Positions 80-36,438 of a stretch of 43,474 nucleotides of DNA are shown piece by piece (the stretch's first letter is position 1; the number at the start of each line of letters is the position of its first letter). The translations under genes were made by a program, and so were the position numbers. Below the pieces are notes generated by a model that was given only the letters and a program-made list of their open reading frames with translations, made no database searches and was not told where the DNA came from. The stretch spans positions 1 through 43,474 of the forward strand of contig JAMYWO010000309.1 of NCBI GenBank assembly GCA_024220525.1, in the 5' to 3' direction. Origin of the DNA: Cochliopodium minus. Taxonomy: Eukaryota; Discosea; Himatismenida; Cochliopodiidae.

Positions 80-3000
80 CCTTTAAACTTTTTTATTTGC
101 TTTTGGTTTTGGATGTTGAAAATTCTGATTGCGTTGTCACCTCCACAACTAATGATTTCATTGTCATTTTTTGGATTGATCAGAACGAAGTTCACTTTGT
201 CTTTATGCCCTTCCAAAATTTTGACTTGCTTGTCACCTTTTTTAATATCCCTAAAAAAAAAATATTTAAAAAAAAAAAATAAAAAAAAAAATTAAATAAA
301 TAAAAATTAAAATTAAAATTAAAATTAAAATTAGAAATAAATTAAACTTTTAATGTTTTCTTTTTACCACAATCTAATAGTACAATCAACACTACTTGTG
401 ATTACTTCTCCTTCATTTTTTTTGTTTGGAAACAGAAAAGTTATTCTGTCTTTGTGACTATTCTTTGCTTTCTTGAGTTTGTACTTGCTCTGGGAAGAAT
501 CATCCAATTTCCATATTCGCAGGGTTTTGTCGCTACTCCCACTGATCAACTCATACTCGTTTTTTGGGTTTAAAAGGATGAATTTCAAGCTAGAGACATG
601 TCCGTGGAATATTTTGGTTTGTTTTTCGATTTGGGTATTCCTTTTTTAAAAATAATTAATAATAATTTTTTTCTTTCCAGATTTTTTTAATTATTTAAAT
701 TTTTCAAATTTTATTAATTCATTTACCAAATTCTTATCGTCCTGTCTTTGCTTGCACTGATTATTTCATGTTCATTTTGGGAATTAATAAGAATCAAATC
801 AACACTCTCAGTATGTCCCTCAAAAATTTTTGTTTCTTTACCACCGGCCAGATCCCTAACAAGAAAAATCAATGATTTTTAAAATTGAAATTTTTTTTAT
901 TAAAACCAGGTCCTGATAGTTTTGTCTTCACTGCAACTTATTAACTCGTTTTTATCCTTAGGGTTGATCAATATTTTATTTACACTTGAAGTGTGTCCCT
1001 TTAGTTTCTTGAGTTGTGATTGATTTTCAATGTCCCTTTAAATAAGATAAAATCTATAAAAAATTTGGAGAAAAATATAATATTTTTTGGGACCATATTC
1101 TAATGGAGTTGTCTCTGCTGCAAGTGATGATTTCGTTGGAATTACTAGGATTAAACAAAACAGAATGTATATCTAGTTTATGCCCTTCAAAAATCTTCAG
1201 CTGCTTTTCGCTTTGGATGTTCCTAAAAAAAAAAAGTTTAAAGAAAAAAATTTCAAAACCAAAAAAAATAATTTTCAAAACCAAATTCGAACGGTACAAT
1301 CATCACCACAGCTTAATAAAATATTAGAGTTATTTGGATCCAAAAGTAAACAATTTATTTTATTAGTATGTCCTTCTAACAGCTTGGTTTGGATTCCATA
1401 CTGAGTATTCCAAACTCGAATGGACTTATCGTGGCTTGCGCTTATTAGCTCATTTTCGTTGTTGGGATTTAATAAAAAGATGTGGACTTTCCATGTGTGA
1501 CCTTCCAACACCTTTGATTGTCTCCCTTTTTTTGTATCCCTTTACAATAACAATAAAATTAATAAAATTAAAAATTAAAAATATAAATTTACCAAACTCT
1601 TATCGTACAATCGTCTCCACAACTTAACAATTCATTTTCTTTTTTGGGATTATACAAGATTTGATTAATGAAAGATGTGTGTCCTTCGAATTTCTTTATG
1701 ATCTCCTGTGTTTCAAACTTTATTTTCAAGATGCTCCCATCGTAAAAAGAAGCGAATAAATGTTGATTGTTTTTGTCAAAGGCAATACAAGTAGGAACAC
1801 TTTTAAATTTGAAGAAAGGGTTTTGAGAAAAATTGATATCGTTCATCAAACAGCCGTTGAATTCAACGTTTGTTAGATTAGAAAAAGAAAAGTCAACTCT
1901 TCTCAAGTCACAATTAATAAATTTGCTCCCATTAAAATTTGAGTTCCTCAAATCAGCTCCACAAATTCTGATACCATCGTATTTTCTCTCAAACAGTGGA
2001 AATTTGGAGTGATGAAGAAGGGAGATAGAATTAGAAGAGGCAATCTCTATTTTGTCGTTGGTTTTGGATTCATCTATGACACTGTACAAGATCTCCTGAA
2101 ATGTTCTCTTATTTTTGTCTGTTTTGTAGACTCCAGTTGAGTTTTTTTTCTCGTGGAGATCCATTAAGATTGAATCAATAATGAAATCAAAAATTGAAGG
2201 TTCATCATTAAGACTTTTCTCATTTAGAAGGGAGATCAAGAATGCTTTCTTTTTGTCAAGATATTTAGGTGTGGCTCTTTGAAATGACTGGATCGCCCTG
2301 ATAAAGAACTCCGAAACGAAAAACTCCCAAATTGATTTGTGCATGAAAGAATACGTGTTCTCCGATGTCTGCTTGATCAAACAACAATATCTTATCAACT
2401 CAAGATCCTTATTGTTTTCATCATCAAAAAATATCTCCCATTCCTTCATCTCGTTTTGATCATCTTCCACCAACAAAAACTCATCACTACTGTCCGCCCT
2501 AAACATGTTCTTTCTTTTATTTACAATTTTTTTTTTGATGTAAGTCACTTCAAAAACGTTTTTAGAAAACATTTTCTTGGCTAATTCCACTGAAAAGTTA
2601 ATAAATTGAGAGTCCATGTCTTCAGGAACCTCCTTGTTTTGTTTCGCGAGCTTGGATTTTTGCCTCTCAAGCCATATTTTGCCAAATGTTCTGTAAATCT
2701 GCAAAAGAGGTATTTCAATATCTTCTTTCACATCCAATTTATATTCTTCGACCAATGATGGCAAAGAAATGATAGAAATTTTCAAAAGAAGAGGATTAGA
2801 CAAAGTTTCAACACCAATTTTATAGATGTACTCCAAATACTTCTTGTGCTCTTCCCATTGTGTCTCCGCTTTCCTGTTGACAAAAAATTTTTTCAAAAAT
2901 AGATGGATATCGCTACTTTGGAAGGGTTTAATAAATATTTTGAGAAATAGTTGCGAAGGGATTTCAGTTCCTATCGGATAAAAATACTTTTCACGATCTT

Positions 3001-6000
3001 CTGCATTATCGCCCAAAGAACTGAGATATTGGCTCCTACAAGTGATGATCACCTTACAGTTCCACTCAAAAAGCTTATTTTCTTTGAAAATATTTTTGGG
3101 AGGAGTTTCCTTTGCTGCCCATCCAATTTCGTCATATCCATCCAAGATAAAAATAAACTTTTTGTTTTTTTTCAACCATTCTAATTTCCTATCCGCAACA
3201 TCATAGTTCTTGAAATAATTTTCGATCAATTTATCGATCTCGTTTGGCTTCACAGTCGATAATCTTATCCACACAATAAAAAAATCACTAGCCAATTTAT
3301 CTTCCATCAAACATTTTGTTAAATAAATACTCATTGTTGTTTTTCCAATACCTTTGTTCAAAAATTCAAAATATGAGAAACGTAATTTATGTTCATTAAT
3401 GACTATATTACCACTTTCTCCAAGTACAAGCAAAAGCTTCTTGTTGGATTCATGCAAAAACAAATCTATTTCTCCTTTTTCTTCCTCGGAAGTGAACACC
3501 AGGCGCAAAATATCACTCTTTTCACTTCGAGTAGATTTGGGGAGGACATATAACAATAGTTCTTTCTCTTCTTGTTGGTATATTTTCATAAAGTCTTCTT
3601 TGATGAGATCCTTTAAACCTAAAAGTTTATGTGAGTAGATTGATTTAATTAAAAAAGAAACACTTACCAATCAACTCTAAGGACTTATCCAGTCTAATTG
3701 GACTTGAACCAGGAAGACCATGTTCGATTTTTTCATTAGAAAGGTGATTTTCATGAATAATGTCAAAAACAATTTTGGTATTACTATCTATTAAATTTGT
3801 TTTCATTGGGCGGGTTGGTGAAAGATACTCCTTTATAATTTTATCATTTCTTATATAATTAATGAAAGAAATGTGGTTATTTTTGTAGAGATAAGCAAAT
3901 ATCCTGATTGATTTTGTAAATTTGGAGAAAATGAGAATGGGAGGTTTGTTAGGAAATATGTAATGTAGTTCCAACTTGCGCATGTCAATCAACAATCCAA
4001 TGGTGGTTTGATCTATAAAATTCATTTCGTTTTCATTTGATAAAATGCCTAGAGGGTTGCAAATTGTAACAGGACCTAGGTTCATTAATATTTTTCTGAT
4101 TGTCATATATTAATAAAAAAAACTATTAATTACCAATAGCCCAAACTTTGTCAAGGCTTGTCACTTCTTCATTACATTCAACGTCTCCATCAACAGAAGA
4201 ACAAATACCCAAATACAAACCCTTTGAATTATGTAAAAGAATTTCTACATAGTGTATAAAATTATTTTCTGATTTGCTTTCAAGACTGGCGCTGATTTTT
4301 GGAGATTCGAAAATTTGTTCAGAAACAATATAATTATCATCCATATCATTATTTAATGCAGACTTGTTGTTTTCTTTAAACTCCACTTTTGAAGTTTTGC
4401 TTTTCCAACTTATTTCAAGGAATTTCCCTTTAGAGGTGACAAAGATTGAAGGTCTGTAGTGGGGATTAGGAAATTTCTGAAGATCGTAATAATAATCAAA
4501 CTCAATATCCAGCCCAAAATTTTTATATTTAGTTATTGTGATTATAGCTTCATCGAACAAGCAAGAGAAAATGTGGATAGGTTCATCGGTCAATATTCTC
4601 AAAAAGAGAAGTAGTTTGTTTTTAAAACAATAGTAAGCTTCTTTCTTATCAAAATTAAGAAGGATTCCAACATCATTCCCATTCTTCAGTTCATTGGAAA
4701 ATTTTTTAGACTATAAAAAAAAAAAAAATTATCAATAAAAAAATTTAGTTATTTTACCTCAGGAACAAAAAAATTGGTTTGATCGTAATAAAAACTTTCT
4801 TTAGGTCCTTTAAAAAAGTTTAAAAATTATTCTAGTTAATAAGTAATTAAAGAAAATATTACCCACTGCCCATAGATGATCAGAGTTTTTAGGGCCGACA
4901 TTGTAATCCAATTTAGATCTTGTGGTTACACCTAAGTATATATTCTCAAACTTACAATTGAAAAATAATTGTAATTTTAAAAGATAATTATGAAAATTTA
5001 CAATGTTATCAAGGTGAAACTCAATGTAATGTATCCCACTCGAAAAAGATTGCTCTGAGATTATTGAATTTTTTCTAGTCGTTTCATTGTACAGTGTCTT
5101 TTTATCATTGCTAATTGTTATCATGGAGCCCTTACGTTCACAATCCCAATTCATTTGGTTCTGTTGGTTGATATTACTTATATTGTTGTTTCTTAACAAA
5201 TTTTTCATTTGCTCGAAAATATCTTCATTACTCTTGAAAAACTTTGAAAAAAGTTCGCTTTTCACTTTTTTCTTTATAATTGTTTTACTCTTGAAATCCA
5301 AAATTGAAAAATCATTATCCGAAACAGAATATTTAAATTTTTCTTGCATATAATGAGAAAAACTTTGAAAAATTTACATGATTTAAAAATATTTAAAAAA
5401 AGATTACCTAAACTCAAAGTCTTCGTAATCTACAAAAAAATGAAACTTGAAATTCTCCATCCAAAAGTCCTTTGCTATCAAGAAATTATTGTTAAAGATT
5501 AAAAAAAAATTTATTACCATCTTTATTTGCATTTTCGAAAAAAAAATCATTCATTTCTACAATAGCTTCTTCTTCAATTTTAATGGGAGAATCTTCATCA
5601 TTGGAGCTGATTATTTCCACAACTCTTTTTTCGATGGTTGATTGTCCAAAAAAACTCACATACTGCTGCAGTCTGATGATACTCGATCCTCCAAAAGAAG
5701 CCTTGAAATATATCTTTAGAAAATTGATTTCCTCAATTGTTAAATTCTCACTAATAAATAAATTTAACGTTGAGAAATATAAATATATTTTATAAAGAAT
5801 TTACTCTTCCTTCCTTGATAAATTGACTTTCAAAATGATTCTAAATATATATTAATTCAAGCAAATAAAAAAAATGAATAAAATCACTTATCGAACAAAT
5901 CATCCAAATTTGCCTCTTTCTTTCCAGTAAAGTAGAATTTCCAAAAATCTTTCAAACTGACATTGCTTATTTTGTCTATAATGGAATTGACAAGATCCTT

Positions 6001-20454: not shown

Positions 20455-23400
20455 CTACTTGAGATTGTATTGTTTCTTTAAGTGAGGAAAATTAGAAATG
20501 TGAGCCTCCTTCATTTCAAAAACAGGCAACAAATGAGCCTCAGTGTTAAAAGTGTAGTCTCCTTGAGTGACAAAGTTGTCAAAGTCAAACAAAAGATATA
20601 AATATTTTAAAGTCTCCGCTAAGAAAAAGCTATCCATGATGTCGTCAAGGCCAAAGTTGGCGACGGTACGGATGGAAGCGAAACCACATTGAGATCTTGT
20701 TCTTTCAATGGTGTTGACAACCTTTTCACCAAAGTCGATCAAGAATTCTTTTCAAAATAAAATAAAAAATAAAAAAAAATGTTTACAAAATGAAAAAAAA
20801 AATAAAACCTTCTTTTGTAGTTTTAAAAGCGTGGTAAAGACTTTCAGGAAATTCAGGACGCAAAGGATAACCCTCATTAGCGATAGAAGCATGACCATTA
20901 CCAACCATGGACAACTCTGGCAATGCTCCGAGTTCATTCCACACGTTCATGATAGCTTTGAGGTTGTCCAAAGCGATTTCTGTTTCCCCATCAAGTGCCA
21001 AGACACCCTAACCAGAAAATTTTTTTTTTAATTATTACATTTTTTATTTTTATTTTATTTCAATTTATATTTTTATATTTTTTTATTTTATTTTTTAATT
21101 ATTACATTTTTTATTTTTATTTTTTATCTCATTTTATATTTTTTATTTTCTTTACAGGAAAGAAAGCAGCAAGACTGGGAAAATGGTTAGTACCATAGTT
21201 GAAGAACATTTTGCTCTCTTTGTTGTAGAGGGAGGAGATGATTTGGGTCTTTGCTTCCTTCCACATGGTTTTGTAGTCGTCATCATTGAACATGTATCCT
21301 GCTTTGTACATGTACTCGTATGCAGAGTCCTTAAAAAAATTCATGAAATAAAAAAATAAAAATAAAAATAAAAATAAAAAATAAAAAATGTACAAATATG
21401 TTAATAAAAAAATAAAAATATAATTTTAAAAAAATATAATTTTTAAACAATAATGAAAATAAATTAAAGTCTTTTTAATAAAAAAATAAAAAAAAATAAA
21501 AATAAAAATAAAAAATAAGAAAATAAAAAATGAAAAATAAAAAAAATTTATAAATAATGAAAATTTATAAATAAATAATGAAAAAAAATAATTTGTTAAA
21601 AAGGAAAAAAAAAGTTACCATATGACCACCAATTCCTAATCAATAAAATTAATTTTTATAAATTATTTTTATTAATTTATTTGATTTTTTTATATTTTAC
21701 CTGTAGGAGGACCAAACATCCAAGCCAAGTTGTCAATGTTGATGTGGTTTCCCATCAAACTTCCGCTGCCAGACTTTCTTGCTCCCCAAACCTTTTGCAT
21801 GGTATTCTTTGCAATCTTGTCCCATTTAGGTTCTCCTGTTAATCTAGACAAAAGACCAAACTCTAAAGCGAATGTACCTTTATGAAAAAATAAAATAAAT
21901 ATGAAAAAATAAAATTGAAATAATAATAAATAAAAAATAAAAATAAAAAATGAAAATAATAAAATAATAAAATAATAAAATAATAAAATAATAAAATAAT
22001 CAAATAATAAAATAATAAAATAATAAAATAATAAAATAATCAAATAATCAAATAATAAAATAATAAAATAAAATAATAAAATAATCAAATAATAAAATAA
22101 TAAAATAATAAAATAATAAAATAATAAAAAATAAAAATAATAAAATAATAAAATAAAAAAAAAAAAAAATAAAAAATAAAAGATTAAAATTTTTTGTTTA
22201 CATGCACAAGCTGAGCAAGTGATTCTACTTTCGTGCGGAGAAACTCCTCTTCTCAAATTGATCTTTGAAAAAAAAAAAAAAAAATAAAAAATAAAAATTT
22301 AATTAAATATAATTTTGAAATACAAATAAATAAAATATATTTTAAAACGATCATTTTTTTTTTTTTTACGGCACCAAAGTTGACTCCAGTAGGAGTATCA
22401 AAGGCAAGGTACAACCTCTCTGCCATGTCTATTGCAAGACCGAGAAGTTCTCCTTTGTATCCGGGAACCATATTTTTTTCAGGATCACTGGCAAGCATGT
22501 GGCCAGCTAACAAACCTGTGAAAATAGAAAAAAAAAAAAATTTCAATCTATATTATTTAATAAATTTTAAATTCAAAAAATTAAAAAAATAATTTTTTTT
22601 TTTTTTTTTTTTTTTTACCTCCTACAACTCTGATGTTGGTCTCAAAAACACTCACATCTTTGTCAAAGTCAAAATTTTTGACTTCTTTTATCAACAAATT
22701 TACTAAGGAAAAAGAAAAAAAAAATTATGAAACAATAAAAAAAATACAAAAATAATGAAGAAAAATAAAAGAAAATATTTTAAAAAATATTGGAAAGTAA
22801 AAAAAAAAATGTTTTTAATTTTTTTTTTTTTTTATAAAAATTACCAATTCTCCTGAACTCAGTGACGTTCCCCATGATAGCCACAGTGTCCATACAATCG
22901 ATCAAAGTCAAATAGACGCCACCAAACTTGGAGATACCACTACAAGAGATGGGTTTGAGCTCGTCCAAAGGGAAAGCCTTCTCGAGGTAGCTGTTGTAAG
23001 CAAAGTAGAACATCTCCTTGACCTTGGCTTTCAATGTCTCTGCCTTCTTTCGGGTCTCAGCGCTTATCGATTTGAACGCAGGGTTCTTCTTTTGCTTGAG
23101 CTCCTCGCTTTGTGGGGCTTGCTTTTCTTCTATGCTTTCTTGCATCTGGATGCTCTTTTTGAAGTCTTCGAGGATCTCTTTTTCTTTGTTGCTTTGATAG
23201 TTTTTGTATTTCTCCTTGTCTTCTTTGTCATCATATGGCTTGGTTTTGTTTTCGATCACCACTGGATCTTTTTTGACTGGATTTTTCTCCATGTTTTTGA
23301 CTATCTCTATATCATTGTAAAAATGATGAGTGAAAATGTTGATTAATTTAGATATCTGATAAATTGAGATGTAAATTATGATTGTATTTGTTGATTAATA

Positions 23401-24126
23401 TTGATCTTTTATCGATCATTTTTACTGAATATAATAAATTTTCATTATATTGAAAGGAAGATTTTTCTAATTTGAAAATTCTTTTACCTTCATATTCTTT
23501 TTTCTTGTTAGCTATCAATTCCTCTTGATCTTTTGCATATGTTCTACCTCTTCCTCTCTTCTTTGTTTCTTCTTCTCTTTTTGGTTTGATATCATTCTTT
23601 TCTTGTATTTTTCTTTTATCATGATGTGTATCATCTATTATTTTTGAAAATTTAGAATGGCAATTAAATAATCATACAAATATTATGTCTTTGTATTATT
23701 TGACTTTTAATATGATATCCATTATGGTTATCATCTATAAAATATTCTATTATGATACGTGTATAATGTTTATATTAAAATAAGATTTATAGTTTAAATT
23801 CTACCATTTGTTTCAATTTCTTTATTTTTCTGCATCACGGATATGAGATCATTTTCATGATCTTTTTTTTTAAGTTTTGGAGCACCTATTGGCTCATGAT
23901 GTAATCCATCATTATCCTCCTCAATCACTTTATTTTTCTTTTCATTGATGGGTTTTTTGATGCTGTTTGAGATTTTTTTGGGGACAAATTGATTGGTCTC
24001 TGAGATATCTTTTACTGGAGATTCAAATTTCTTCATATTTGATATTATCATCATTGTAAACCAGATGAATAGCCATATCATCAAAATCATGGAGATCCTT
24101 TTGGATCTGGTGTTCAAATTAAACAT
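20455..24126 (-). CDS. EDEM-type GH47 alpha-1,2-mannosidase-like protein (ERAD)
   Basis: A 693-residue type II membrane protein in 11 exons (24126-23805, 23634-23488, 23306-22845, 22702-22619, 22515-22370, 22262-22202, 21877-21701, 21635-21619, 21329-21156, 21007-20809, 20747-20455). A transmembrane anchor at about 12-30 (ISMILMIWLFIWFTMMIIS) is followed by a long charged luminal stem to about 245, then the GH47 fold. It resembles EDEM more than ER mannosidase I: MFYFAYNSYLEKAFPLDELK, CSACACTFALEFGLLSRLTG, MDSFFLAETLKYLYLLFD, FNTEAHLLP. Catalytic acids known from GH47 are visible: Glu in VFETNIRV, Asp in MDSAYEY, Glu in LRPEFPES; the calcium-binding Thr is in FNTEAH. The usual MESFF is MDSFF. 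It would trim mannose on misfolded glycoproteins in the ER and mark them for degradation. The eighth exon is only 17 nt. Confidence 0.9.
21955..22150. repeat. (AATAAAAT)n octanucleotide microsatellite in EDEM intron
   Basis: About twenty imperfect octamer units with occasional AATCAAAT variants, inside the intron at 22201-21878. Read on the minus strand it gives a spurious long Leu/Phe/Tyr/Ile frame. Confidence 0.9.
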
Positions 24127-24184: not shown

Positions 24185-27100
24185 ATGGGTATGTTTATAA
24201 AAATGCTTTAATTAAAATAATTAGAGCTTTTGAAAATATATTAGAAGTTGAAGTGATAACGATTGATTTTGGAACCACAAAAACAAGATTTTCTTTAAGA
24301 TTGAAGAATAATGAACATCCAATCACTTGCAATAGATGGAATGGGATTAATCAGGTGTCTAATAATGAATCTATACTTATTTACTCAAATAAAGAAGAGG
24401 ATAATAAACTTATCGCATATGGATATCATGCAACAGAATTAATAAAGGAGAATTCATCAAATGAAAAGGGATTGGATGTGATCATTCATAGCAATTTTAA
24501 ATTGCAATTATTCAAAAAGAATAAGAAGGAAGCGGGAAAGAAATTGATAACGGAATATCTCAAAAATATAAAAGAGGATTTAATAAAAATGATTAGGAAA
24601 GAATATCAATACAAATTGACAGATAATACAAAATTTATATTAACTGTAAAAATTATATTATTTAATACAACGTGGCCAAAATTTCATACATTTGTTTAAA
24701 CAAAGGTGAATGATGTATGGGATATTGAACACAAAGCGATGTTTAGAGAATGTTGTCTTGAAGCGGGATTATATAAAACAAAAGATAACAGTTTTAAACG
24801 TTTCGAAATGGTGAATGAGTCAGAAGCGGCCATCAATTATATAGTAAATTCCAAATTTTGCCAAGGCATGATAACGGAAGATTCTCCATTTATTCTTTTG
24901 ATTGCTGGGGCCGGATTTGTGGAAGCATCTTATTATAGTTTTGATTCATTTCTCATGAAATTGGTCCAGTTAGGTCCTTCTTTGGGGGATTGTTGTGGAG
25001 GACAAAAGGTCGACACTAAATTTTTGAAGTGGTTTCATTCTTTGATAGAAGGGAACGAAAAATATGAAGACTTTTATCGGGAATACAAAAATGATAGTCA
25101 TTTCATCCAATTTGTTAATAACTGGAAAGAAGTTAAACATTCTTATAGTGAAGAGACACCAAGATATTATGTAAAGATTCCCCTCTCGTTGCAAAAAGTG
25201 CTTGTTTTCAAAGGGGAGTACGAAAGTATGTTTGTAAGGAATAAAGTTGTAGTGACAAAGGAAAGGATGATCTCTTTTTTCGAAAAACCGTTGAAAAAGA
25301 CCGTTTCTTTTATTAAAACAATTTTGAAAGGGAACAACAATATAAAGGAGGTGATTTGTGTTGGTGGGTTCATCAATTCAGATCTTTTGTTTTATTCCTT
25401 GCAAGACAGATTTGAAAGAAAAGAGTATAACAACAAAACAAGAAAGATTATAAGATTATTTGAGTCCGAAAGCGCAATCGTATCTGGTGCTTCTTATTCT
25501 TTTGAAACCATCAACTTTAAAAATGAAGAATACGAGATTACTAGATATTTGGAAAACTACATATTTTCAACGAGGCCTATTTTGATTGATAATTGCCATT
25601 CTCCTTTCAGTTATTTCGAGAAAGGAAACTACGAGCCACATTTCAAACACTCTTTTGATTTAAACAAAGATGATGAAAATATTGAGGCACTCTATCTTCA
25701 CAAAGTAAAGGAGAGCAGGAGATTTCTCGAATTTCAAGAATTTCACCTTCCCATCAACTTTGGGAATGAAACTGAAATGGAAGTTGAGGTGCACTTTGGC
25801 GGGTCTGAATTGTATGCTTCATTTTCAACGAATTCCAAAATCAACATCTTTTTCAAAGAAAATTTTGAACAAGGTAATTAATAAATATGATTTAGGTTTT
25901 TATTTATTTATACTTCTTTTGTTAGAAGAGAAAGACCATTTGAAACTATTGAAAGAATTAGGTTTTATTGATATTGATAATAACAAAAAATTCCTCAAAA
26001 ATGGTGATATTTCGATGTTGGTTGATCAAAATTTTATGGTGAATCCCCTACATCTCATGTTCGTTAAAAAAAGTTATTACAAACAAATGATCGAAACTTT
26101 TTTTTATGGGAGAAACGATTATTATAAATTTGGTGATTCTCCATTTCTCAATTTGACCTTAAAAAGTAACTTAAACTTTGAATATGTCAGATTTCTTGTT
26201 GATAATAAATGTGATGTTAATTTGAAGGACAAAAACAAAAACACTCCTCTCCATATTGCTTGTTCTCTTGGAAATATATCTTATGACATTGTAAGATTGT
26301 TGGTTGATTCTAATACTGATTTAAATATTAAGAATAAAACATCAGATCTACCTCTTCAAATATCTCTTAAAAATAGTAACATTTCTTTGGAAATTATTGA
26401 ATTGTTATTCGAAGGTACCAAATTCGATACAAACCAATGCAACCTCCTCCATTTGGCTGTTTCTAACAAACATTTTAATGTTGAAGTAATAAAATTTTTA
26501 TTGAACAACATTGACGTCAACACAGTCGATCAATTTGGAAACACAGCTCTTTTGGTTTACTTTGAACGTAAACACCTCAACATTGAAAATATAAAGTACT
26601 TAATATCTGCGAAAAGTGATGTATTCCGCAGAAACATAAATGGTGAAAACATCCTTCATAAATTATGCAAGAGAAAGGAAATTCCTGATATTCAGATCAT
26701 TGATTTTTTCGTCCAAAACAAGGCGGACATAAATTCATTTAATAACAATAATAACACACCTCTCCATTACTTAATTCAAAATAAAAATGTCACCCTTGAA
26801 ATTTTAGAATATTTCTCCGAAATGAAATGTGATATAAATCTAAAAAATAATCAGGGTGTTTCTATATTTTCATCTTCACTCAAAAACAAACACATTACAT
26901 CTGAATTACTCAATTTTTTGATTGAAAAAAGAGCAGACTTGAATGCGCTTGACAATGAAAATAATTCTCCTTTCCACTACATTTGCCAGAACAAAAATCT
27001 ATTAAATCATATAGAGATAATTGAGTATTTAGTCGAAAAAAATTTGGATTTGAATATCAAGAATTCCTCGATGCTTACAGCTCTTCACCTTCTTTGTCAA

Positions 27101-30100
27101 AACAACCATATTTCTTACGATGTAATCGAGTTTATGATCGAAAATAAATCAGACACAAGTGTATTTGATAAATATCTTTGTTTACCTCTTCATTACATTT
27201 GTACGAATAGAAATATTTCCAGCCAAATGATTGAGTATTTGATAACTGATCAAAGCAATTTGAATATCCAAAACAAGAACAAAAACACACCATTTCATAT
27301 TCTTTGTGAAAATGAGATGATCAACCTTAATCTCATCAAGTTTTTCGTCGAAAATAAAGTGAATATAAACACAAAGGGAAAATTTGACGAAACTCCTTTT
27401 CACTTGTTATGCAAAAACAAAAATGTAACAATTGAAATTGTAGAATATTTTTTTGAGAACAAAGTAGACATAAATATGAAAGATAGGTACTTAAATACTG
27501 CTTTTCACTATGCATTTCAGAACGAAACAATCTACATTCCTATTTTAGATGCTCTCATTGAAAAAAAATTGGACATCAACACAAAAAACGAACTATTGAT
27601 GACTCCTCTTCACTTGGCTTCTCAAAATAAAAATATTACAATTGAAATAATCGAATTTATGGTTGAAAATAAAGCAGAATTAAACACTCTTGACAAAAGC
27701 CTCAACTCTCCTTTTCACTACTTCTGTCAAAATGAAAATGGTACTATTGAAATGATTGAACATTTAGTAGAAAATAAAGTGGATATGAATCTCAAGAACG
27801 AAAACGAAATTACACCTCTCCTTTACTCTTATCTCAACAATTATTTTACTTTTGATATCATAGAGTATCTCATAGAAAATAAGGCGGGTGTCAACTTGAA
27901 GGACAAGTATCATGACTCTTTAATTCATCTGGAATGTAAGAATAGGAACATTTCCCTCGAAAAAATAGACTTTTTCATTCAAAACAAATTGGACATCAAC
28001 ACGAAAAACGAACTATTGATGACTCCTCTTCACTTGGCTTCTCAAAATAAAAATATTAGCAAAGAAATTGTTGAGTTGATGATTGAAAATAAAGCCAATG
28101 TCAACATCATGGACAAATATTCTAATACTCCTCTCCACTATGCGTGTGGTAATGTTAACAATAATGTGATTGCTTGCCTCGTTGACAATAACTCTGATTT
28201 GAATATTAAAAACGAACTTGATAAGCATGCTCTTGAAGTTTTGCAAGATATAACGGGATTTTCCTCTTCTATTTTCTTGTTGTATGACTCTCATTTTGAG
28301 GTAAATAATGTATTAATATTTACTTTTCTTTTTAATTATTTTTTTTTAGCTTAAAGAAGGACATGAGATAACCAAATTTGAAATATCCAAACATTATTTA
28401 TACTGTGACAGTAAATTGGAGGACATTTTCAAAGATATTTTCGTCAAAAATCTGTCATATTACAACAGCTTTCAAGTTGAGAAGATGAAGATAGTAGATT
28501 TTACAATAAATAAACAAGATCTAGAAGTGATCGATGACACTTTTTCAATCAAAGAAATTCTGGAAAAAAACAGCATTACTGCAGAGAACGGGGTGAAGAA
28601 GATCTTTCCTAAAATTTCGATTTATTTTAGTGCCAAAATTCCTTGCAACACAGAAAGTTGTGAGTATGTTGATGAAAATGGATTTTCTTATTCAATGAAC
28701 AATTGTAATTTCCTTTATCAAAAATAAAGTATATTTATTAATTTTTTTCCAGGTAAGTTCAAGGATCGAAGGCTTTTTGAAGGAAAGGGAACAAAGTATG
28801 ATCAAAATAAGAAAATTTTATGGGATGGAGAATGGAAAAATGTAATTTCAAATTATTTTAGTTCCTAATTATAAATATCATAATTTTAGGGAAGAGAATA
28901 CCAAGGAGTTGGTAAGTGTTTGTATCTTGAAAATGGAATTATCAATTGGGATTTCGAAGGGAAATTGGTTGGTGGCGAACCAGATGGATTGGTCAATTTG
29001 GAAAATAAAGAAATGAACTTCTCATACAAAGGAAGGTTTGAAAAAGGGATCAGGAACGGGAAATCAATAGTCATTGAACATGGAAAAGAATTTTATGTAC
29101 ATTACGAAAATGGAATTGAAACAAGAAGAGAAAGAATTTTTGAAGGACTGAGGATTGTTGTTTTGGGTTATTTTTTTTTTAATAAACTTTTTTTTTTTGT
29201 TATTAAATCATTTAAAGGAAATGAGAAAGTTGGGAAAACTAGTTTGATTGAGAACATTCTTTCTTTCTCAAACAAAAACAAAAACAAGTTTGATGATTAT
29301 AAAATAAAACATTGTTCAGATGTTGTGGATATCTCGCGCTGGAATGAAAACGACAACAACTTTAGTTTATGGGACTTATCATCAAATGGAGACTACCACA
29401 TCTCCTATCCTTTTATAATTCAAAAAGGATTTTTCTTTGTTTTGATGTTTGATTGCTCGTTGGAACTTGATGTTATCATATCTGGAAATAAGATAATGTA
29501 CTGGCTCAATTTTCTTCAAATACAGATCGGATCTGATGTTAGGTGTGTCAATTCCTTTTTGATTTTACTAATTTTTTAAATTTTTTTTAATCAGATTGAT
29601 GTTGATAGCCAATAAATTAGATATACTTGAGAAAAAGTTTGAAGGAAGCAAAAACAGAATTAATGATAGGATCCAAAAAATACAAAACAGTAATTTATAC
29701 CTTTATTCAAAAATTAATTCAATTAATCACCATTTCCTTTCTCTATTAGTTTTGGAAACAATCGTAAAAGAAAACAAAATCAAAATAAAGTTTCATAAAT
29801 TTGAAAATGAGAGAAAATTCAATCAAAATGAAGAATACAATTCACAAGATTTGTATGTGAGTGATGGTCTTCTATTTTCCCCTATTACCAATAAAGAAAA
29901 CGATCCTACTTTTGAAAGAATATACAATGATCTTTTGTCTACTTGTACTTCCATTGATCCTGGATACAACAAAAAACATATCATGGTCTACGAACTCATC
30001 CAACAACTTTCTGTTAACAAAAAATACATCATTGAAATATCATCAATTCTAGATCACTTGAAAAAGATAGAATCAGGAGATTATAGAATTGAAAGAGCGA

Positions 30101-33100
30101 GTGTAAGAAATTTGGACGAAACTGATGAAGAGGAAAGAAAATTAGCAAGAGATTGCACAGAAAATTTTGACCAAGTATTGTGTGAGCTTGACAAATTGGG
30201 AAGTATAATTTATTGTTTGGAGAACAAAGGTTTTGTCATAAGTGATACGATTTTATTGTCAATAGTAAAGCACAATATAAAACTAATTTTAATTGTGAAA
30301 ATATTTTTTAAAAAAGGCATTTAAAGCAATAATTGACATTGGAAGAAAGAAAATTCAGAGGATAATGGAGCAAATTTTTGAAAGATTAAGAAATGAAAAC
30401 ATTGAAGAAAATGAAGAAATGTTGGAAGAAGATTTATTTCAATACTTCAGCACATTTAAAGAATTAGATGATGAAGAGACCTTCCCCAAAACGGAAGAGA
30501 GTTTCTTTTTGTTTATGAGAAAGTTAATGAAATGGATAAAGGGAGATGCTGATAACAACTTGGATTTTGGGGATATTTGGCAAGATGTTGAGGAAAGAGC
30601 CAAATCTAATGTTGATAAAATAAGTTTTACCACATTGATTGGGATATTCAAATTTTTAGAGTTCAAGTCGAGACAAGAGAGTAAAGAGATCTTTCTTGAA
30701 GTTATAGAAGAAAACTTTTCCAACAAACACTCTCAAGAAACATCCCAATTATTCCTGGCCATGGATCAAGAAGAACTTGAAAATAAGTTGATACAGGAGG
30801 TCTTGGGCTATGATTGCATCGAAAAAGAGAAGATTTATCTGATTGATCTGCTGAATAAATTAGGTGTATTAAATTTCCTACAAAAGAAAACATTGATCCT
30901 CATCGATAATGATGAGGTAGAAGAAACAATCCAAAATTTTCACTATGTACCCCTTTTGTTTCCCAAATCAAAGCCTTTTCACATGATCTTCCAAAACGCA
31001 GGGAATGAGCTTGAGGATGGGAAACAGACAGAAGACATCATCAAGATCAACGAGTGGTCTATGGTCTACTTCCTTCCCTTCAAGCCCTCATCAACCTGGA
31101 AATTGTTATTTGTAAAAATAAGGGATGCATGTATATCAAAAGGAAACAATTTTCGTATGCTAAACGAATTTTATTGGAATGATGGTAAAAAAAATCTTTT
31201 AATCTCTTAAATATAATATCTCTTGTTATCATTTAAAGATGTTTGATCATAACGAGAAATTATTTGCATTTTAATACGATTCAATATACTAAATGAAAAT
31301 AACAATGTATATTTGAGATTATAACTCCAATATATCGATGTTTGTGTTCAAAATATGTGATATTCAAGACACATTTATAAAAGGGAAAATTAAAAAGTAA
31401 ATCGGATTCTATAATCTTTTTATTTTACAAACAATTATCATTTAGGATTTCTCTTTTACTTTGACAACACCCTCAATTTCGAGACCACCATCATAGATCT
31501 CAAATTTTTGGAGGAGTGGAACGTACATAACCAAAACCACGTGATGATGAGAATCAAGATCAAAACCAACGAGAACAGCCATATTTTCTTCCAACCCATA
31601 CACAACGCTATTAAAAGTTTCGTCGAGAAGTATATGGACAAAGAAATTCCGAAGAGGATCAAAGTTAAGTGTTTTAGAAAAATCAACGATTTCAACAATC
31701 ACACCATCCAAAATTACAGTGTCTCCCGCCATTCCATTGTCCAAATATTCCCAAGAAACAGTGTTTTGGAAAATATTATTAAGAGTGAGCCTACCAAAGG
31801 AGAGAAAAGTGTATTATTATTTTTTATTTTATTTTTATTATAATTTTTTACTATTTTTATTTTTATCTTTTAGTCTTCAGGGTGTATGTTTTGTCGTTTT
31901 GATGTAACTTTGGATGAATTTGTGGAGGAATGTGGGAAATGTTCAAACAGAGTCGTAATAGAAAATCAGTTTGCCGTCATCAAAGTCAGTTCCAAAAAAA
32001 AAAAAATTCAAAATATATTTTAATCATAAAATCTTTTGGAAATTTAGATTGTAGCAACCAAAGGTAAACAAATTTTTTTTTCAATTTTTATCCATTATTC
32101 ATAAATATCTTATTTTAAAAAAGATCATGAAAGGATTTTCAAAGCACTACACTTTGAATCAAAGACTTATGTAGCAATAAGAGAAAGAACAGACGACGAG
32201 GAAAAAACAGTGTTAATGTGGAAAAGAAAGATGGAAAACCTCAAAAGAATCCAAAAAGAAATACCAACCCTTAACACTCGTAGGTTAATTTGTGTGCTTG
32301 ACGATACTTCCTATGAAAACGTAGAAGAAAAATATATGGTGCAGGAGTGGATTGAGGGAGACAATTTGAAGATGTTGCACCAAAATGTTTTTCGCGAGTT
32401 GGAGTGTGCGATAGAGAGAGAGAAAGAGTTTGTCAGGATGATGTTGATTTTATTAAATGAGCTTCAGAAGATACATGTCTCTGATTTCATTCACAGGCAA
32501 AAATTCTATTTCATTCTAAATTTTTTTAATCTTTCTTTCATTTAAAGAAATCTTTCTCTCGAAAATCTGATGTTTTACAAAAAGGAAGGAAAATATTTCT
32601 ATATGATCATCAATTTCGAAAAAGCGTTCCACACAAAAATGGACAGCATCAAACAAATATCCAAAGTAAAGAACTCTATTTATTCCTCTCCCGAACAAAA
32701 CACCAACAAAGAAAGCTTCAAAAGTGATGTTTTTTCGTTAGGAACATGCTTCGATAAAGTTTTGGATCTCATTTCTTTGAAAACCAAAATTTCAAGCGAA
32801 ATTTCGGATGTGATATCGAAAATGAAAGAAAATCAAATCGAAAAAAGAGTTACAGTTCAACAGTGCAAGGATCTAATTCTTAAATTTGTCCAACGAAACT
32901 ATCAAAAGAATTTTATCAACAAGTATTTTTACGAACAACCTTATTTGACGGAAAATTTGAACAATCTTAAGCTGCAGATCTATTTGGAAAAGGGTCATGA
33001 TAATGAAGAAGTATTTTTGGATAAGCAAGAGTTAATTGGGATCATTAAGGACAAAAACAACGAGATTCAAATGCTGAATAAAAAAAATGAAGAACAACAA

Positions 33101-33403
33101 AACAAATTATCGTTGGAGAGAGAAGAAAACATAAAGAGGAAAAACAAATTGTTGAAACAAATTAACATCAAGTACAGCAAAAAGTTGAAGAGACAATCCA
33201 AATTGACTGATTACAAAAATAATAGTGAGATTTCAAATAATTTTGTCAAACCTGCTGAAGATTCAAATTCTTTGGCCACTCCTGTACAATATTCTGTTGA
33301 AGTTCCCAAAAAGTATACTTATTGTATAGTTGTTTACAGCATCTTCTTTGTCATTTTGTTCGTTTTGATCTTTCTTGGATTTTTATTCGACAATGACTAC
33401 TAA
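24185..33403 (+). CDS. Giant Hsp70-like/ankyrin/MORN/Roc-COR/pseudokinase tail-anchored protein
   Basis: ROCO-family protein of 2750 residues; 15 exons (24185-24188, 24245-24645, 24706-25873, 25926-28300, 28350-28704, 28753-28841, 28890-29166, 29218-29542, 29595-30264, 30317-31184, 31446-31810, 31874-31984, 32048-32063, 32124-32496, 32548-33403) sum exactly to whole codons. By residue: HSPA12-like Hsp70 ATPase fold 1-525 (VITIDFGTTKTRFS; ILTVNDVWDIEHK; VICVGGFINSD), phosphate-2 loop degenerate (IAGAGFVEASYY); about 20 ankyrin repeats 615-1300; MORN-like segment 1440-1540; Roc GTPase 1550-1690 with GNEKVGKTS and ANKLD, DxxG altered to DLSSNGDY; COR about 1860-2290 (HYVPLLFP, FYWNDG); CxxC pair 2300-2335 (CMFC, CGKC); kinase fold 2340-2590 with HRN for HRD and NFE for DFG; coiled coil; C-terminal transmembrane segment (IVVYSIFFVILFVLIFLGFLF). 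The intron at 32497 has a GC donor. Probably a membrane-anchored GTPase scaffold. The 4-nt first exon is the least certain part. Confidence 0.85.
27567..27638 (+). repeat. Near-identical 72-nt segment, copy 1 (ankyrin repeat 14)
   Basis: Matches 27987-28058 with one mismatch (A at 27583, G at 28003). The two encode the same residues, including KNELLMTPLHLASQNKNI. The spacing is exactly 420 nt, that is 140 residues or four ankyrin repeats. Confidence 0.9.
27987..28058 (+). repeat. Near-identical 72-nt segment, copy 2 (ankyrin repeat 18)
   Basis: Partner of 27567-27638. Flanking repeats have diverged strongly, so this short block is younger than the array and points to recent gene conversion or unequal exchange. 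Confidence 0.9.
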
Positions 33404-33447: not shown

Positions 33448-34479
33448 TTATTTCGAATTCAATTGATTAATTAGTGTGAGATTAGATTGTGAAATATCGT
33501 TGATATCAATCAATTTTAGTCCATCACAAATTAGGAAATCGTTCTTGTTGGAGGATACATCAATTAGCTTGAATCTTTTTTCGACCTCTTCAAAAATAAA
33601 AATCATGGTGATGAGGCTGAACTGTTTGGATTCAACATACACTCTGATTTGGTTGATTGATTCTTTGATAAAGAGGATTTGAATAATCCGATAACCAAGA
33701 CGTATGTTCGATAAACATTCCCCATTTTGAAAATCCCTTGGATAGAAGAAAATAATTTAATTTATAAAATTTAATTTTGAATTTTTTGACCATAATCTAA
33801 TAGTATTGTCATAACTGCATGTGACTAATTGATTTTTGTTTTTGGGATTGAACAAGAAAAATTTGACACAAGAACTAAACCCCTTCAAAATTTTGACTTG
33901 TTTTAGTGACAAACAATCCCTGATTACAGATTTTAGCATCAATTTATTTTTAATAAAACAAACAGGCCTGAAAACAAACTACAATAAAAAATTTTACCAT
34001 ACAACAATTGTGTTGTCCATACAAGAACCCAAGACTTCATTCTCATTACTTGGATTAAACAAAATGAAAATGATCTTATCTGGGTTGTTGAGAATAGCTC
34101 TTTCTTTTTTTTTTTGGACATTCCTTTACAATGAATAGAGATATTCATTATACAACAGTTATAAATTTTAGACATCTCGAATGTTTTAAAAAATGTTTAC
34201 CACAATCTTATGGTTTTATCATGACTACAACTGATCAATTCATTGTTTTTAGGATTGACCAACAATCTGTATATTTTATCTTTGTGTCCCTTTAAAATTC
34301 TGGTTTGTTTTTGGGTGTTAAGATCCCTTTTTTTTTAAAAATAATATATATTTAAAAAAATGAAATAAAATGAAATAAAATTTTAGTACCACACTCTGAT
34401 AGTATTGTCATTACTTGCACTGAATAATTCATTCTCGTCATTTGAGTTTATCAAAAGATGATTCACATTACCAGTATGA
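33448..34479 (-). CDS. 3' part of a WD40-repeat gene (5' truncated)
   Basis: Exons 34479-34390, 34326-34201, 34123-33998, 33919-33791 and 33736-33448 encode four WD40 repeats and a C-terminal tail ending at TAA 33450-33448. The repeats contain NELFSASNDNTIRVW, NNELISCSHDKTIRLW, NEVLGSCMDNTIVVW and NQLVTCSYDNTIRLW. They share style, exon length (126-129 nt) and phase (TG|G of the terminal Trp) with the NACHT-WD40 gene at the left edge. The first exon opens in the middle of a WD repeat (HTGNVNHLLIN) after an intron holding (TTTTTTA)n; no 5' part exists upstream before the N at 34604. The tail (IRLGYRIIQILFIKESINQI, then KLIDINDISQSNLTLINQL) may close the second propeller or form a separate end. 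Best explanation: the missing 3' end of the gene at 80-6006. Alternative: a 5'-truncated paralogue. It converges with the giant gene, 44 bp apart. Confidence 0.85.
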
Positions 34480-34526
34480 CTGTTTGATATTCAATTTCAA
34501 ATTTTTTAATTTTTTTATCCAAGTTA

Positions 34527-34603
34527 TTTATTTTTTATTTTTTATTTTTTATTTTTTATTTTTTATTTTTTATTTTTTATTTTTTATTTTTTATTTTTAT
34601 TTT
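34527..34603. repeat. (TTTTTTA)n microsatellite, same unit as 1-73
   Basis: About ten heptamers with slightly shorter terminal units, abutting the N at 34604 and lying in the intron 5' of the first orphan WD40 exon. Confidence 0.95.
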
Positions 34604-34604
34604 N
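34604..34604. other. Single N; probable contig junction
   Basis: Left of it is a microsatellite in a minus-strand WD40 intron. Right of it is an open plus-strand coding frame. Both genes are cut at this base, as expected of a scaffold join. Confidence 0.75.
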
Positions 34605-34754
34605 GAATCTAATACTCCAAACAAAAAGAGAAAAACTAAGGTTTTGTATACCTCTCAAAGGGAAATTATCCCAACTAATACTAACACTTTATATCACAAA
34701 GTTTCTTCCATCACTCAACCTTGTCCCTCCCAAATATGTGAAGATCTTCCTTAA
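34605..34754 (+). CDS. Orphan C-terminal coding end (5' missing)
   Basis: An open frame of 49 codons begins at the base after the N and ends at TAA 34752-34754. It starts ESNTPNKKRKTK (NLS-like basic cluster) and ends PSQICEDLP. Its base composition is clearly less A/T-rich than the flanking intergenic DNA, which supports real coding sequence. It may be the last exon or part of it; an acceptor AG at 34639-34640 would shorten it. No family can be named. Its 5' part is not present in the window. Confidence 0.45.
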   Translation, partial: ESNTPNKKRKTKVLYTSQREIIPTNTNTLYHKVSSITQPCPSQICEDLP

Positions 34755-35223
34755 ATATATTTAAATAAGATTTTAAATTAAATAATTACTTTTCCAAATT
34801 CCTTTTCTTTTTTTTGAATACCTAATATCTTCACTTTTGTCTCCAAAATCAAAAGATTTTCAAAAATTCAATTTCAAATATTAAAAAAATAAATCGAAGA
34901 AATTTAATCTTTTTTTTTTAACATAAAAAAAGGCTTTTTATTTCAACCATTTTCATATCTGGAATCTTTGTTTCTCATTGTAGTTTTAATGAACTTTCTA
35001 TGTGACAGAAGTGAACATCTATGTTCCTTGATAAATCTTTAACTAAAAAACTTATGAAAATATTCAATTAAAACTTACAAAAGAAGACTTTTTGGGCAGA
35101 AAATAAGATAAACTAAAAGGCCTTTTCATAAACAAATAGTACTTTTCTTTAATTTATTTTTTATTGATTATTTTGATTTTTTAAATTTCTTCGTGGATTT
35201 GAAAAAGTTAATTTCAAAACTCT
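34755..35223. other. Intergenic, 469 bp, no gene seen
   Basis: Very AT-rich DNA with homopolymer runs between the orphan coding end and the stop of the START-domain gene. No open frame with coding character,, RNA gene or repeat was recognised. Confidence 0.6.
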
Positions 35224-36438
35224 TTAATTGAATTTTTTTTTGAGAAATTCTTTGTAACCCTTGGCAGTGGATTCAATAGCAGCAGGCATTGCTTTATCAA
35301 CCTTTAAATGATCAAAATCAAATAAAAAAAAAATTTAGAAAAATAAAATTAAAAAAAAAACAATAGAAATAATACCAAAGAAGTCATCAACCAACCTTTA
35401 AGATTAGTGTGCCAAACACAATCGACTTCATAAACGGTATCCTCTCCTTCTTTAGATTGTTTTGCGATCATACCAGAAGAGTAGCCACATCCACGAACGT
35501 ACTCTTTGAAGGAAGAATTATTTAAAATTAATTTAAAATAATCACTGTTTTAATTCTAAAATTTTTTTTATTTTTAATTCTAAATTTTTTTTTTACTTTT
35601 GTTTTCTTTGATCTCATCATGTTCAATGGAACCTACATTCAGTTAAATAAAAAAAATTAAATTTTAGTTTTTATAAAAGATTTACCACCACAAACAGTAA
35701 CAGTACCATCTTCATCGATCCAATATTCCCTCAAAAAAATAAAATCACGGGAAGATATAAGACCAGCTAGCAAAATTAAAAAAAAAAATTTAATTTAAAG
35801 AATAAAATAGTTTTATGAAGAGAAAAAATTTCTAAGAAGAGATTGTTCATTTTTTTTTTTTACCTAATGCAGGTTGAGTAACATTGTAATCAATGGTTCT
35901 TGTCTTTGTGATTCTTTTAAAGACCTTTGTATCTTCGTGGGTGGATTCTTGTTCCCATTCTTTTTTTCCCTTTGGAGTTTAATGTTTGATGAAAATAATA
36001 AAAAAAAAAAAAAAATTTACTTCTATATCGTGGAAAGTATCTTCAAAGATTGAAGAAAAATTAATTAAAAGTAAAATATTGGCATAATTATTTCTTACCA
36101 ACAAAATATTGTGCTGTTAATCTTTTGAAAAATGTTAAAAATGTTTATGATATTTTTTCTTTGAATTCACCCTTTGGCAACGAATCTGGCTTTATATCTC
36201 CATGCATTCACTTGAAAGGATTTATCCTATAAAAAATATTTTTAATCATAATCAAGGATACAAGAAATGGATTAATGACAATAATTCAACTTATGAATGA
36301 ATGCATTCTTTTTTTTACTTTCAAGGTATAGATGGTGCAATTTTCACTCTTGGAAGTTTCAACCCATTTGTCCGATTCGAGTTTTTCCAAAAACCCCTTT
36401 TTAATTTCTTCAACCTTTTCTTGATAATCATTCTCCAT
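35224..36438 (-). CDS. START-domain lipid-transfer protein
   Basis: A 215-residue, single-domain StAR-related lipid-transfer protein in nine small exons (36438-36319, 36226-36171, 36121-36099, 36040-36021, 35969-35864, 35766-35686, 35632-35597, 35503-35376, 35301-35224). Visible START features: the opening helix (EEIKKGFLEKLES), KWVETSKSENCTIYTLK, NAWRYKARFVAKG, TRTIDYNVTQP, the family hallmark ISSRDFIFLREYW, then VRGCGYSSGMIAKQ, VYEVDCVWHTNLKGWL and the closing amphipathic helix (KAMPAAIESTAKGYKEFLKK). No signal peptide or membrane segment, so it is probably cytosolic and shuttles a sterol, phospholipid or ceramide; the ligand cannot be read from sequence. Two exons are only 23 and 20 nt. 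Length matches minimal START proteins such as the STARD4 group. Confidence 0.85.

What the first reader, a model, noticed from the sequence alone, without database searches (positions are those of the whole stretch)
24185..33403. A single 2750-residue protein fusing Hsp70-like, ankyrin, MORN, Roc-COR, zinc, pseudokinase and tail-anchor modules
Fifteen exons join in phase to a whole number of codons with recognisable domains throughout. Known ROCO proteins carry ankyrin, LRR, kinase, WD40 or MORN parts. I know of none that begins with an HSPA12-like Hsp70 fold and ends with a membrane anchor. A chaperone-like sensor linked to a GTPase switch and a dead kinase on a membrane could be a new type of stress or damage receptor.
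Basis: partly seen in the sequence, partly recalled or inferred. Interest (0 to 1): 0.92.

Follow-up and report, generated by a model that had tools for sequence, protein, structure and literature searches.

The report
Hsp70-headed ROCO receptor with silenced enzymes
One gene of a single-celled eukaryote joins an Hsp70-like head, ankyrin repeats, a ROCO GTPase core, a dead protein kinase and a membrane tail; it looks like a membrane-bound sensor or scaffold that has lost its enzyme activities, and the same genome holds a second such fusion that was probably assembled separately.

The parts
24185..25873 (+). Exons 1-3: Hsp70-like domain (residues 1-525), nucleotide-binding part plus beta part; changed phosphate loop IAGAGF in place of DAGGGT
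   Evidence: gene model; paralog profile to DnaK; model and PDB alignment; motif table
25926..28300 (+). Exon 4: ankyrin cap and repeats (residues 525-1316)
   Evidence: Pfam Ank_2 1.1e-81; 18 hits of a loose repeat motif
28350..28704 (+). Exon 5: linker without family match (residues 1317-1435)
28753..29166 (+). Exons 6-7: degenerate MORN-like region, ends at the start of the Roc P-loop
   Evidence: by eye; Pfam none in the window, MORN 2e-5 in paralog C75
29154..29807 (+). Roc GTPase domain (P-loop GNEKVGKTS intact, switch II WDLSSNG changed, NKLD intact)
   Evidence: Pfam Roc 4.5e-11; motif table
29808..31808 (+). COR region (exons 9-11), intron 31185-31445 is the longest
   Evidence: homologous to paralogs that hit COR-A/COR-B
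31881..31984 (+). Exon 12: Cys4 (CxxC...CxxC) zinc-ribbon-like motif
   Evidence: conserved pattern in paralogs; no family hit
32048..32959 (+). Exons 13-15: pseudokinase (VAIR for VAIK, HRN for HRD, NFE for DFG)
   Evidence: Pfam Pkinase 1.4e-8; motif table
32960..33316 (+). Coiled-coil-like region
   Evidence: sequence, by eye
33317..33382 (+). C-terminal transmembrane helix (residues about 2720-2741), six residues from the end
   Evidence: hydropathy

Best explanation
One gene encodes a tail-anchored ROCO protein with an Hsp70-type head. Shown by sequence: the domain order, the one-gene continuity (through paralogs), and the loss of catalytic motifs in the Hsp70, Roc and kinase parts. Inferred: the protein sits on the cytosolic face of an internal membrane; the Hsp70-like head and the ankyrin array bind a ligand or client without an ATPase cycle; Roc-COR serves as the dimerising hinge; the pseudokinase passes the signal on by binding and allosterically steering an intact ROCO kinase paralog (such as the C83 type) instead of phosphorylating. 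It is thus a pseudoenzyme receptor or scaffold built on a ROCO chassis whose N-terminal module was exchanged.
For: Gene model open over 15 exons. C96: one 1,004-codon frame spans Hsp70 residues ~134-400, ankyrins and MORN part. C19: one 1,284-codon frame spans MORN-like part, Roc, COR, zinc motif and kinase. C81 and C218 show the same Hsp70-then-ankyrin order without Roc. Hsp70 fold. Catalytic motifs changed in the window but kept in 11 of 11 paralog kinases read (2 of 13 paralog loci had no kinase coverage), 8 of 8 covered Roc switch II rows, and 8 of 10 Hsp70 paralogs (the other two, C96 and C218, are changed too). Terminal hydrophobic helix. ROCO proteins as nucleotide-dependent dimers: passages of PMC4104024.
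Against: No transcript, protein or localisation data. Loss of enzyme motifs could mark a gene on the way to decay, though 2,747 codons are open. COR, MORN and zinc parts of the window copy reach no family threshold of their own. P-loop and NKxD of Roc are intact, so GTP binding may persist. The ligand, the membrane and any partner are guesses. A structure model of a paralog's Roc-COR-kinase core failed (pLDDT 46).
Confidence: 0.4

Rival explanations
1. Two neighbouring genes: an Hsp70-like gene ending at 25881 and an ankyrin-ROCO gene starting at an ATG in exon 4.
For: The Hsp70 frame runs into a stop at 25879-25881 if intron 3 is not spliced. Intergenic distances here can be tiny: the next gene upstream appears to start 58 bases away (by eye). 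C83 is an ankyrin-ROCO gene without the head.
Against: In C96 the same boundary lies inside one uninterrupted frame. In the window the ankyrin cap lies upstream of the first in-frame methionine after the stop and would be lost. C81 and C218 have the same head-cap order.
Confidence: 0.05
2. Active ROCO receptor: the altered motifs are tolerated, Roc still binds and hydrolyses GTP, the head still uses ATP, and the protein signals.
For: Roc P-loop and NKLD intact; some Hsp70 adenosine-loop residues intact (CVGGF).
Against: Kinase lysine, HRD aspartate and DFG aspartate are all replaced; Hsp70 DAGGGT and Roc WDFAG changed.
Confidence: 0.15
3. Regulatory decoy: the protein binds intact ROCO paralogs or their ligands and holds them inactive, without a signal of its own.
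For: Loss of all three catalytic motif sets while the fold and about 48% identity to the intact paralog C83 core remain.
Against: No data on interaction; the added Hsp70 head and tail anchor suggest a sensing or placing role of its own.
Confidence: 0.25
4. Decaying gene: a fused paralog that has lost function.
For: Catalytic motifs lost in three domains at once.
Against: Open reading frame and plausible splice sites over 15 exons; every exon with more than 5 whole codons scores as coding with codon statistics from paralogs, none of the introns scores above 0.006.
Confidence: 0.1

Closest known systems
ROCO family (LRRK1/2, DAPK1, Dictyostelium Roco; bacterial and archaeal Roco)
   Same: Roc followed by COR and a kinase, preceded by repeats; paralogs hit Pfam Roc, COR-A, COR-B, Pkinase; the Roc-COR profile's only PDB hit is a leucine-rich-repeat protein, 4wnr (E 0.0048), an archaeal Roco by recall
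   Different: Hsp70-type head, C-terminal membrane helix, silenced kinase and altered switch II. Passages of PMC11378527 list LRR, ANK, WD40, TPR, kinase, death, TIR, helicase, DEP, RhoGEF, PH and CARD partners, no Hsp70
HSPA12-type Hsp70
   Same: Hsp70 fold; one HSPA12-looking protein P0001 matches the paralog profile (8.4e-21; label recalled from motifs)
   Different: Fused to ankyrin-ROCO; phosphate loop lost
Oyster DED-TRADD-N immunity proteins with HSP70 domains
   Same: HSP70 domain used as a module beside ankyrins and signalling domains in an immunity setting (one passage of PMC8195603)
   Different: STAND, HEPN or AIG-GTPase partners, not Roc-COR
Brown algal ROCO candidate immune receptors
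   Same: Lineage-specific ROCO diversity with variable N-terminal repeats (passages of PMC11378527)
   Different: LRR heads, no kinase or Hsp70

Membership tests
ROCO | Roc domain | tested here: met
   Pfam Roc 4.5e-11, above cut-off
ROCO | COR directly after Roc | tested here: met
   indirect: no Pfam COR hit in the window, but its exons 9-11 align to paralogs that hit COR-A (3 of 7) and COR-B (2 of 7)
ROCO | canonical switch II / GTP hydrolysis | not testable with these tools
   hydrolysis not testable; the motif is changed to WDLSSNG
Hsp70 / actin-like ATPase superfamily | Hsp70 fold | tested here: met
Hsp70 ATPase (working chaperone) | DxGGGT phosphate-binding loop | tested here: not met
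   IAGAGF in the window, DAGGGT in 8 of 10 paralogs
HSPA12 subfamily | closer to HSPA12 than to other Hsp70s | tested here: inconclusive
   one HSPA12-looking database protein; no subfamily model available; PDB hits are ordinary Hsp70s
Active protein kinase | Lys of VAIK, Asp of HRD, Asp of DFG | tested here: not met
   VAIR, HRN, NFE; 11 of 11 paralogs read keep all three
Tail-anchored membrane protein | single transmembrane helix within about 30 residues of the C terminus | tested here: met
   hydropathy peak at 2723 of 2747; insertion itself not testable
MORN repeat protein | MORN profile match | tested here: not met
   0 families for the window region, MORN 2e-5 in C75

The most novel reading that the evidence does not exclude
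This lineage repeatedly builds receptors by putting a catalytically silenced Hsp70 in front of ankyrin-ROCO chassis: the Hsp70 peptide-binding fold has been turned into a recognition module, swapped like leucine-rich repeats or lectins, in at least two separate fusions, and in the window copy all enzymes were silenced to give a pure membrane sensor or scaffold.
Probability: 0.3. Interest if true: 0.78.

Novelty: new variant of a known kind. Interest (0 to 1): 0.58.

Why it matters
ROCO proteins include LRRK2 of Parkinson's disease; how N-terminal modules, Roc-COR and kinase talk to one another is still debated. A natural ROCO in which Hsp70 head, GTPase switch and kinase are all altered separates scaffold from enzyme roles. 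An Hsp70 fold used as a swappable recognition module on a receptor, assembled more than once, would be an unusual example of how single-celled eukaryotes make new sensors.

Tried and rejected
Separate-genes reading: rejected mainly on C96. Two of three protein-database searches gave nothing: long proteins with the Hsp70 region (5,575 candidates) and Roc-COR (7,999 scored); the third gave one HSPA12-looking protein. The two empty searches are weak evidence of rarity, as the collection's eukaryote coverage is unknown. Identifying the host by rRNA: eight attempts with family RF01960 did not complete; an anaeramoebid was considered from memory only, and passages of PMC11550330 neither support nor exclude it. 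The structure model of the C19 Roc-COR-kinase core had pLDDT 46 and was not used. The Hsp70-half tree neither supports nor rejects a common origin of the C306 and C96 heads (AU 0.52 against 0.48). Cap comparison: C218-C96 also score well (122), so the two cap classes rest mainly on the shared insert. tRNA and Rfam scans of the window found nothing. Print searches: no paper of the library holds all of roc-cor, ankyrin and hspa12 (listing); of 10 listed of 225 only PMC8195603 holds both 'roc domain' and 'hsp70 domain', and its passages put them in unrelated places; three of 187 papers held all five terms, of which only PMC8195603 was looked into; some searches gave listings only. Subscription papers and preprints on bioRxiv were not searched.

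Full report
What is there. The window is the whole contig C306 (43,474 bases) of an unnamed 44.65-Mb eukaryote draft in 598 contigs. On the + strand, 24185-33403, I rebuilt a 15-exon gene of 2,747 codons without internal stop. Introns are short and very A+T-rich; each exon with more than 5 whole codons scores as coding with codon statistics taken from paralogs, while the introns score about zero or below (best 0.006).

One gene or several. Transcripts were not available. Paralogs give the best test. On C96, Hsp70 residues about 134-400, all ankyrin matches and the MORN match fall in one uninterrupted frame, L039 1980-4991, 1,004 codons. On C19 one frame of 1,284 codons carries the MORN-like part, Roc, COR, zinc motif and kinase. 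In the window the kinase C-lobe, coiled coil and tail share exon 15. Together these cover every joint except the exact splice points.

The family. Roc-COR of the window gives 71 matches on 36 contigs (60 of 138 candidates scored, so a lower bound; a few are Roc only), the kinase-tail part 78 matches (94 of 102 candidates scored). Members read here have different heads: ankyrin (C83), leucine-rich repeats (C4), MORN (C75), RCC1-like by eye (C127, C75). L-type lectin matches lie beside ROCO matches on 4 of 8 lectin contigs (C96, C325, C185, C87); in C96 the lectin sits between Roc and COR-A. C-termini differ too: coiled coil, ankyrin (C83), PH on C96 (4.6e-16). So a fixed Roc-COR-zinc-kinase chassis carries exchangeable parts.

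The Hsp70-like heads. Two searches gave 24 matches on 11 contigs and 36 on 14. I fetched flanks for 10 contigs besides the window; C1, C48 and C125 were not fetched, and C404 and C542 end soon after the match. Roc, COR and kinase matches followed only on C96. C81 and C218 have head plus ankyrins, C318 head plus Sel1 repeats, and in the others neither ankyrin nor ROCO matches were seen downstream of the head in the fetched stretch.

Two fusions. A tree of the Roc-COR-kinase core puts C96 with C325 (100/100) and C306 near C83, C63, C33 and C88; C306+C96 is rejected (AU p 0.001). C325 has no detected head. The joints differ: C306 keeps the whole head including the beta part and an ankyrin cap with an insert of about 30 residues shared with C81 and C218; C96's match to the head stops at residue 400 and its cap resembles that of C83. 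Recombination between ankyrin arrays of a C81/C218-like gene and a C83-like gene would make the window gene (inference). The tree of heads cannot decide, and one fusion with later losses or swaps is not excluded.

Silenced enzymes. Hsp70 phosphate loop: DAGGGT in 8 of 10 paralogs, DAGAGK in C96, KAGAGS in C218, IAGAGF in the window. Both ROCO-fused heads are changed, as is one of two head-ankyrin proteins. Roc switch II: WDFAG in 8 of 8 covered paralogs, WDLSS in the window; P-loop and NKxD remain. Kinase: Lys, HRD-type Asp and DFG-type Asp in 11 of 11 paralogs read (C153 has HTD and DYG; C302's DFG was misaligned and read directly; C33 and C88 had no kinase coverage); VAIR, HRN and NFE in the window. 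C96's kinase looks intact. The pseudokinase is therefore derived within the family.

How it may work. Shown: architecture, family, motif losses. From established knowledge: ROCO proteins are thought to act as nucleotide-dependent dimers (passages of PMC4104024). Inferred: tail anchoring on an internal membrane, ligand or client binding by head and ankyrins without an ATPase cycle, dimerisation through Roc-COR, and allosteric action of the pseudokinase on intact ROCO kinases. A decoy role is the main rival. I put the identity as a single Hsp70-headed ROCO protein at about 0.93 and the mechanism at 0.4.

Known or new. Passages of two papers on ROCO proteins and the print searches named under Tried and rejected showed no Hsp70-Roc fusion. 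Hsp70 domains as modules of immunity proteins are reported for oysters (passage of PMC8195603). I file this as a new variant of ROCO. The host is not identified.

Noticed in passing
window 1592-3670 (-): A frame with NACHT (9.3e-7), pentapeptide (1.2e-7) and WD40 (2.2e-9) matches, an NLR-like protein on the same contig; the genome has 26 NACHT matches.
   Followed up: partly
L039 6285-7629 (C96): L-type lectin domain between Roc and COR-A of a ROCO protein (4e-12); lectin matches also lie beside ROCO matches on C325, C185 and C87.
   Followed up: partly
window 22783-24126 (-): Divergent neighbour with a glycosyl hydrolase 47 match (1.2e-13); by eye a transmembrane-anchored first exon starts at 24126, only 58 bases from the start of the studied gene.
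   Followed up: no
L042 1546-3298 (C318): Hsp70-like domain followed by Sel1 repeats (2.3e-23), another module combination.
   Followed up: no
window 33448-36000 (-): Downstream neighbour on the opposite strand reads by eye as WD40 repeats, 45 bases after the stop codon; Pfam found nothing in the one frame tested there (33451-33756).
   Followed up: no
G000 C432:15882-17946: Three Roc/small-GTPase matches in tandem within 2.1 kb.
   Followed up: no
G000 C1:633812-634150 (-): A Roc match inside an uninterrupted frame of 14,711 codons, far longer than any other frame listed.
   Followed up: no
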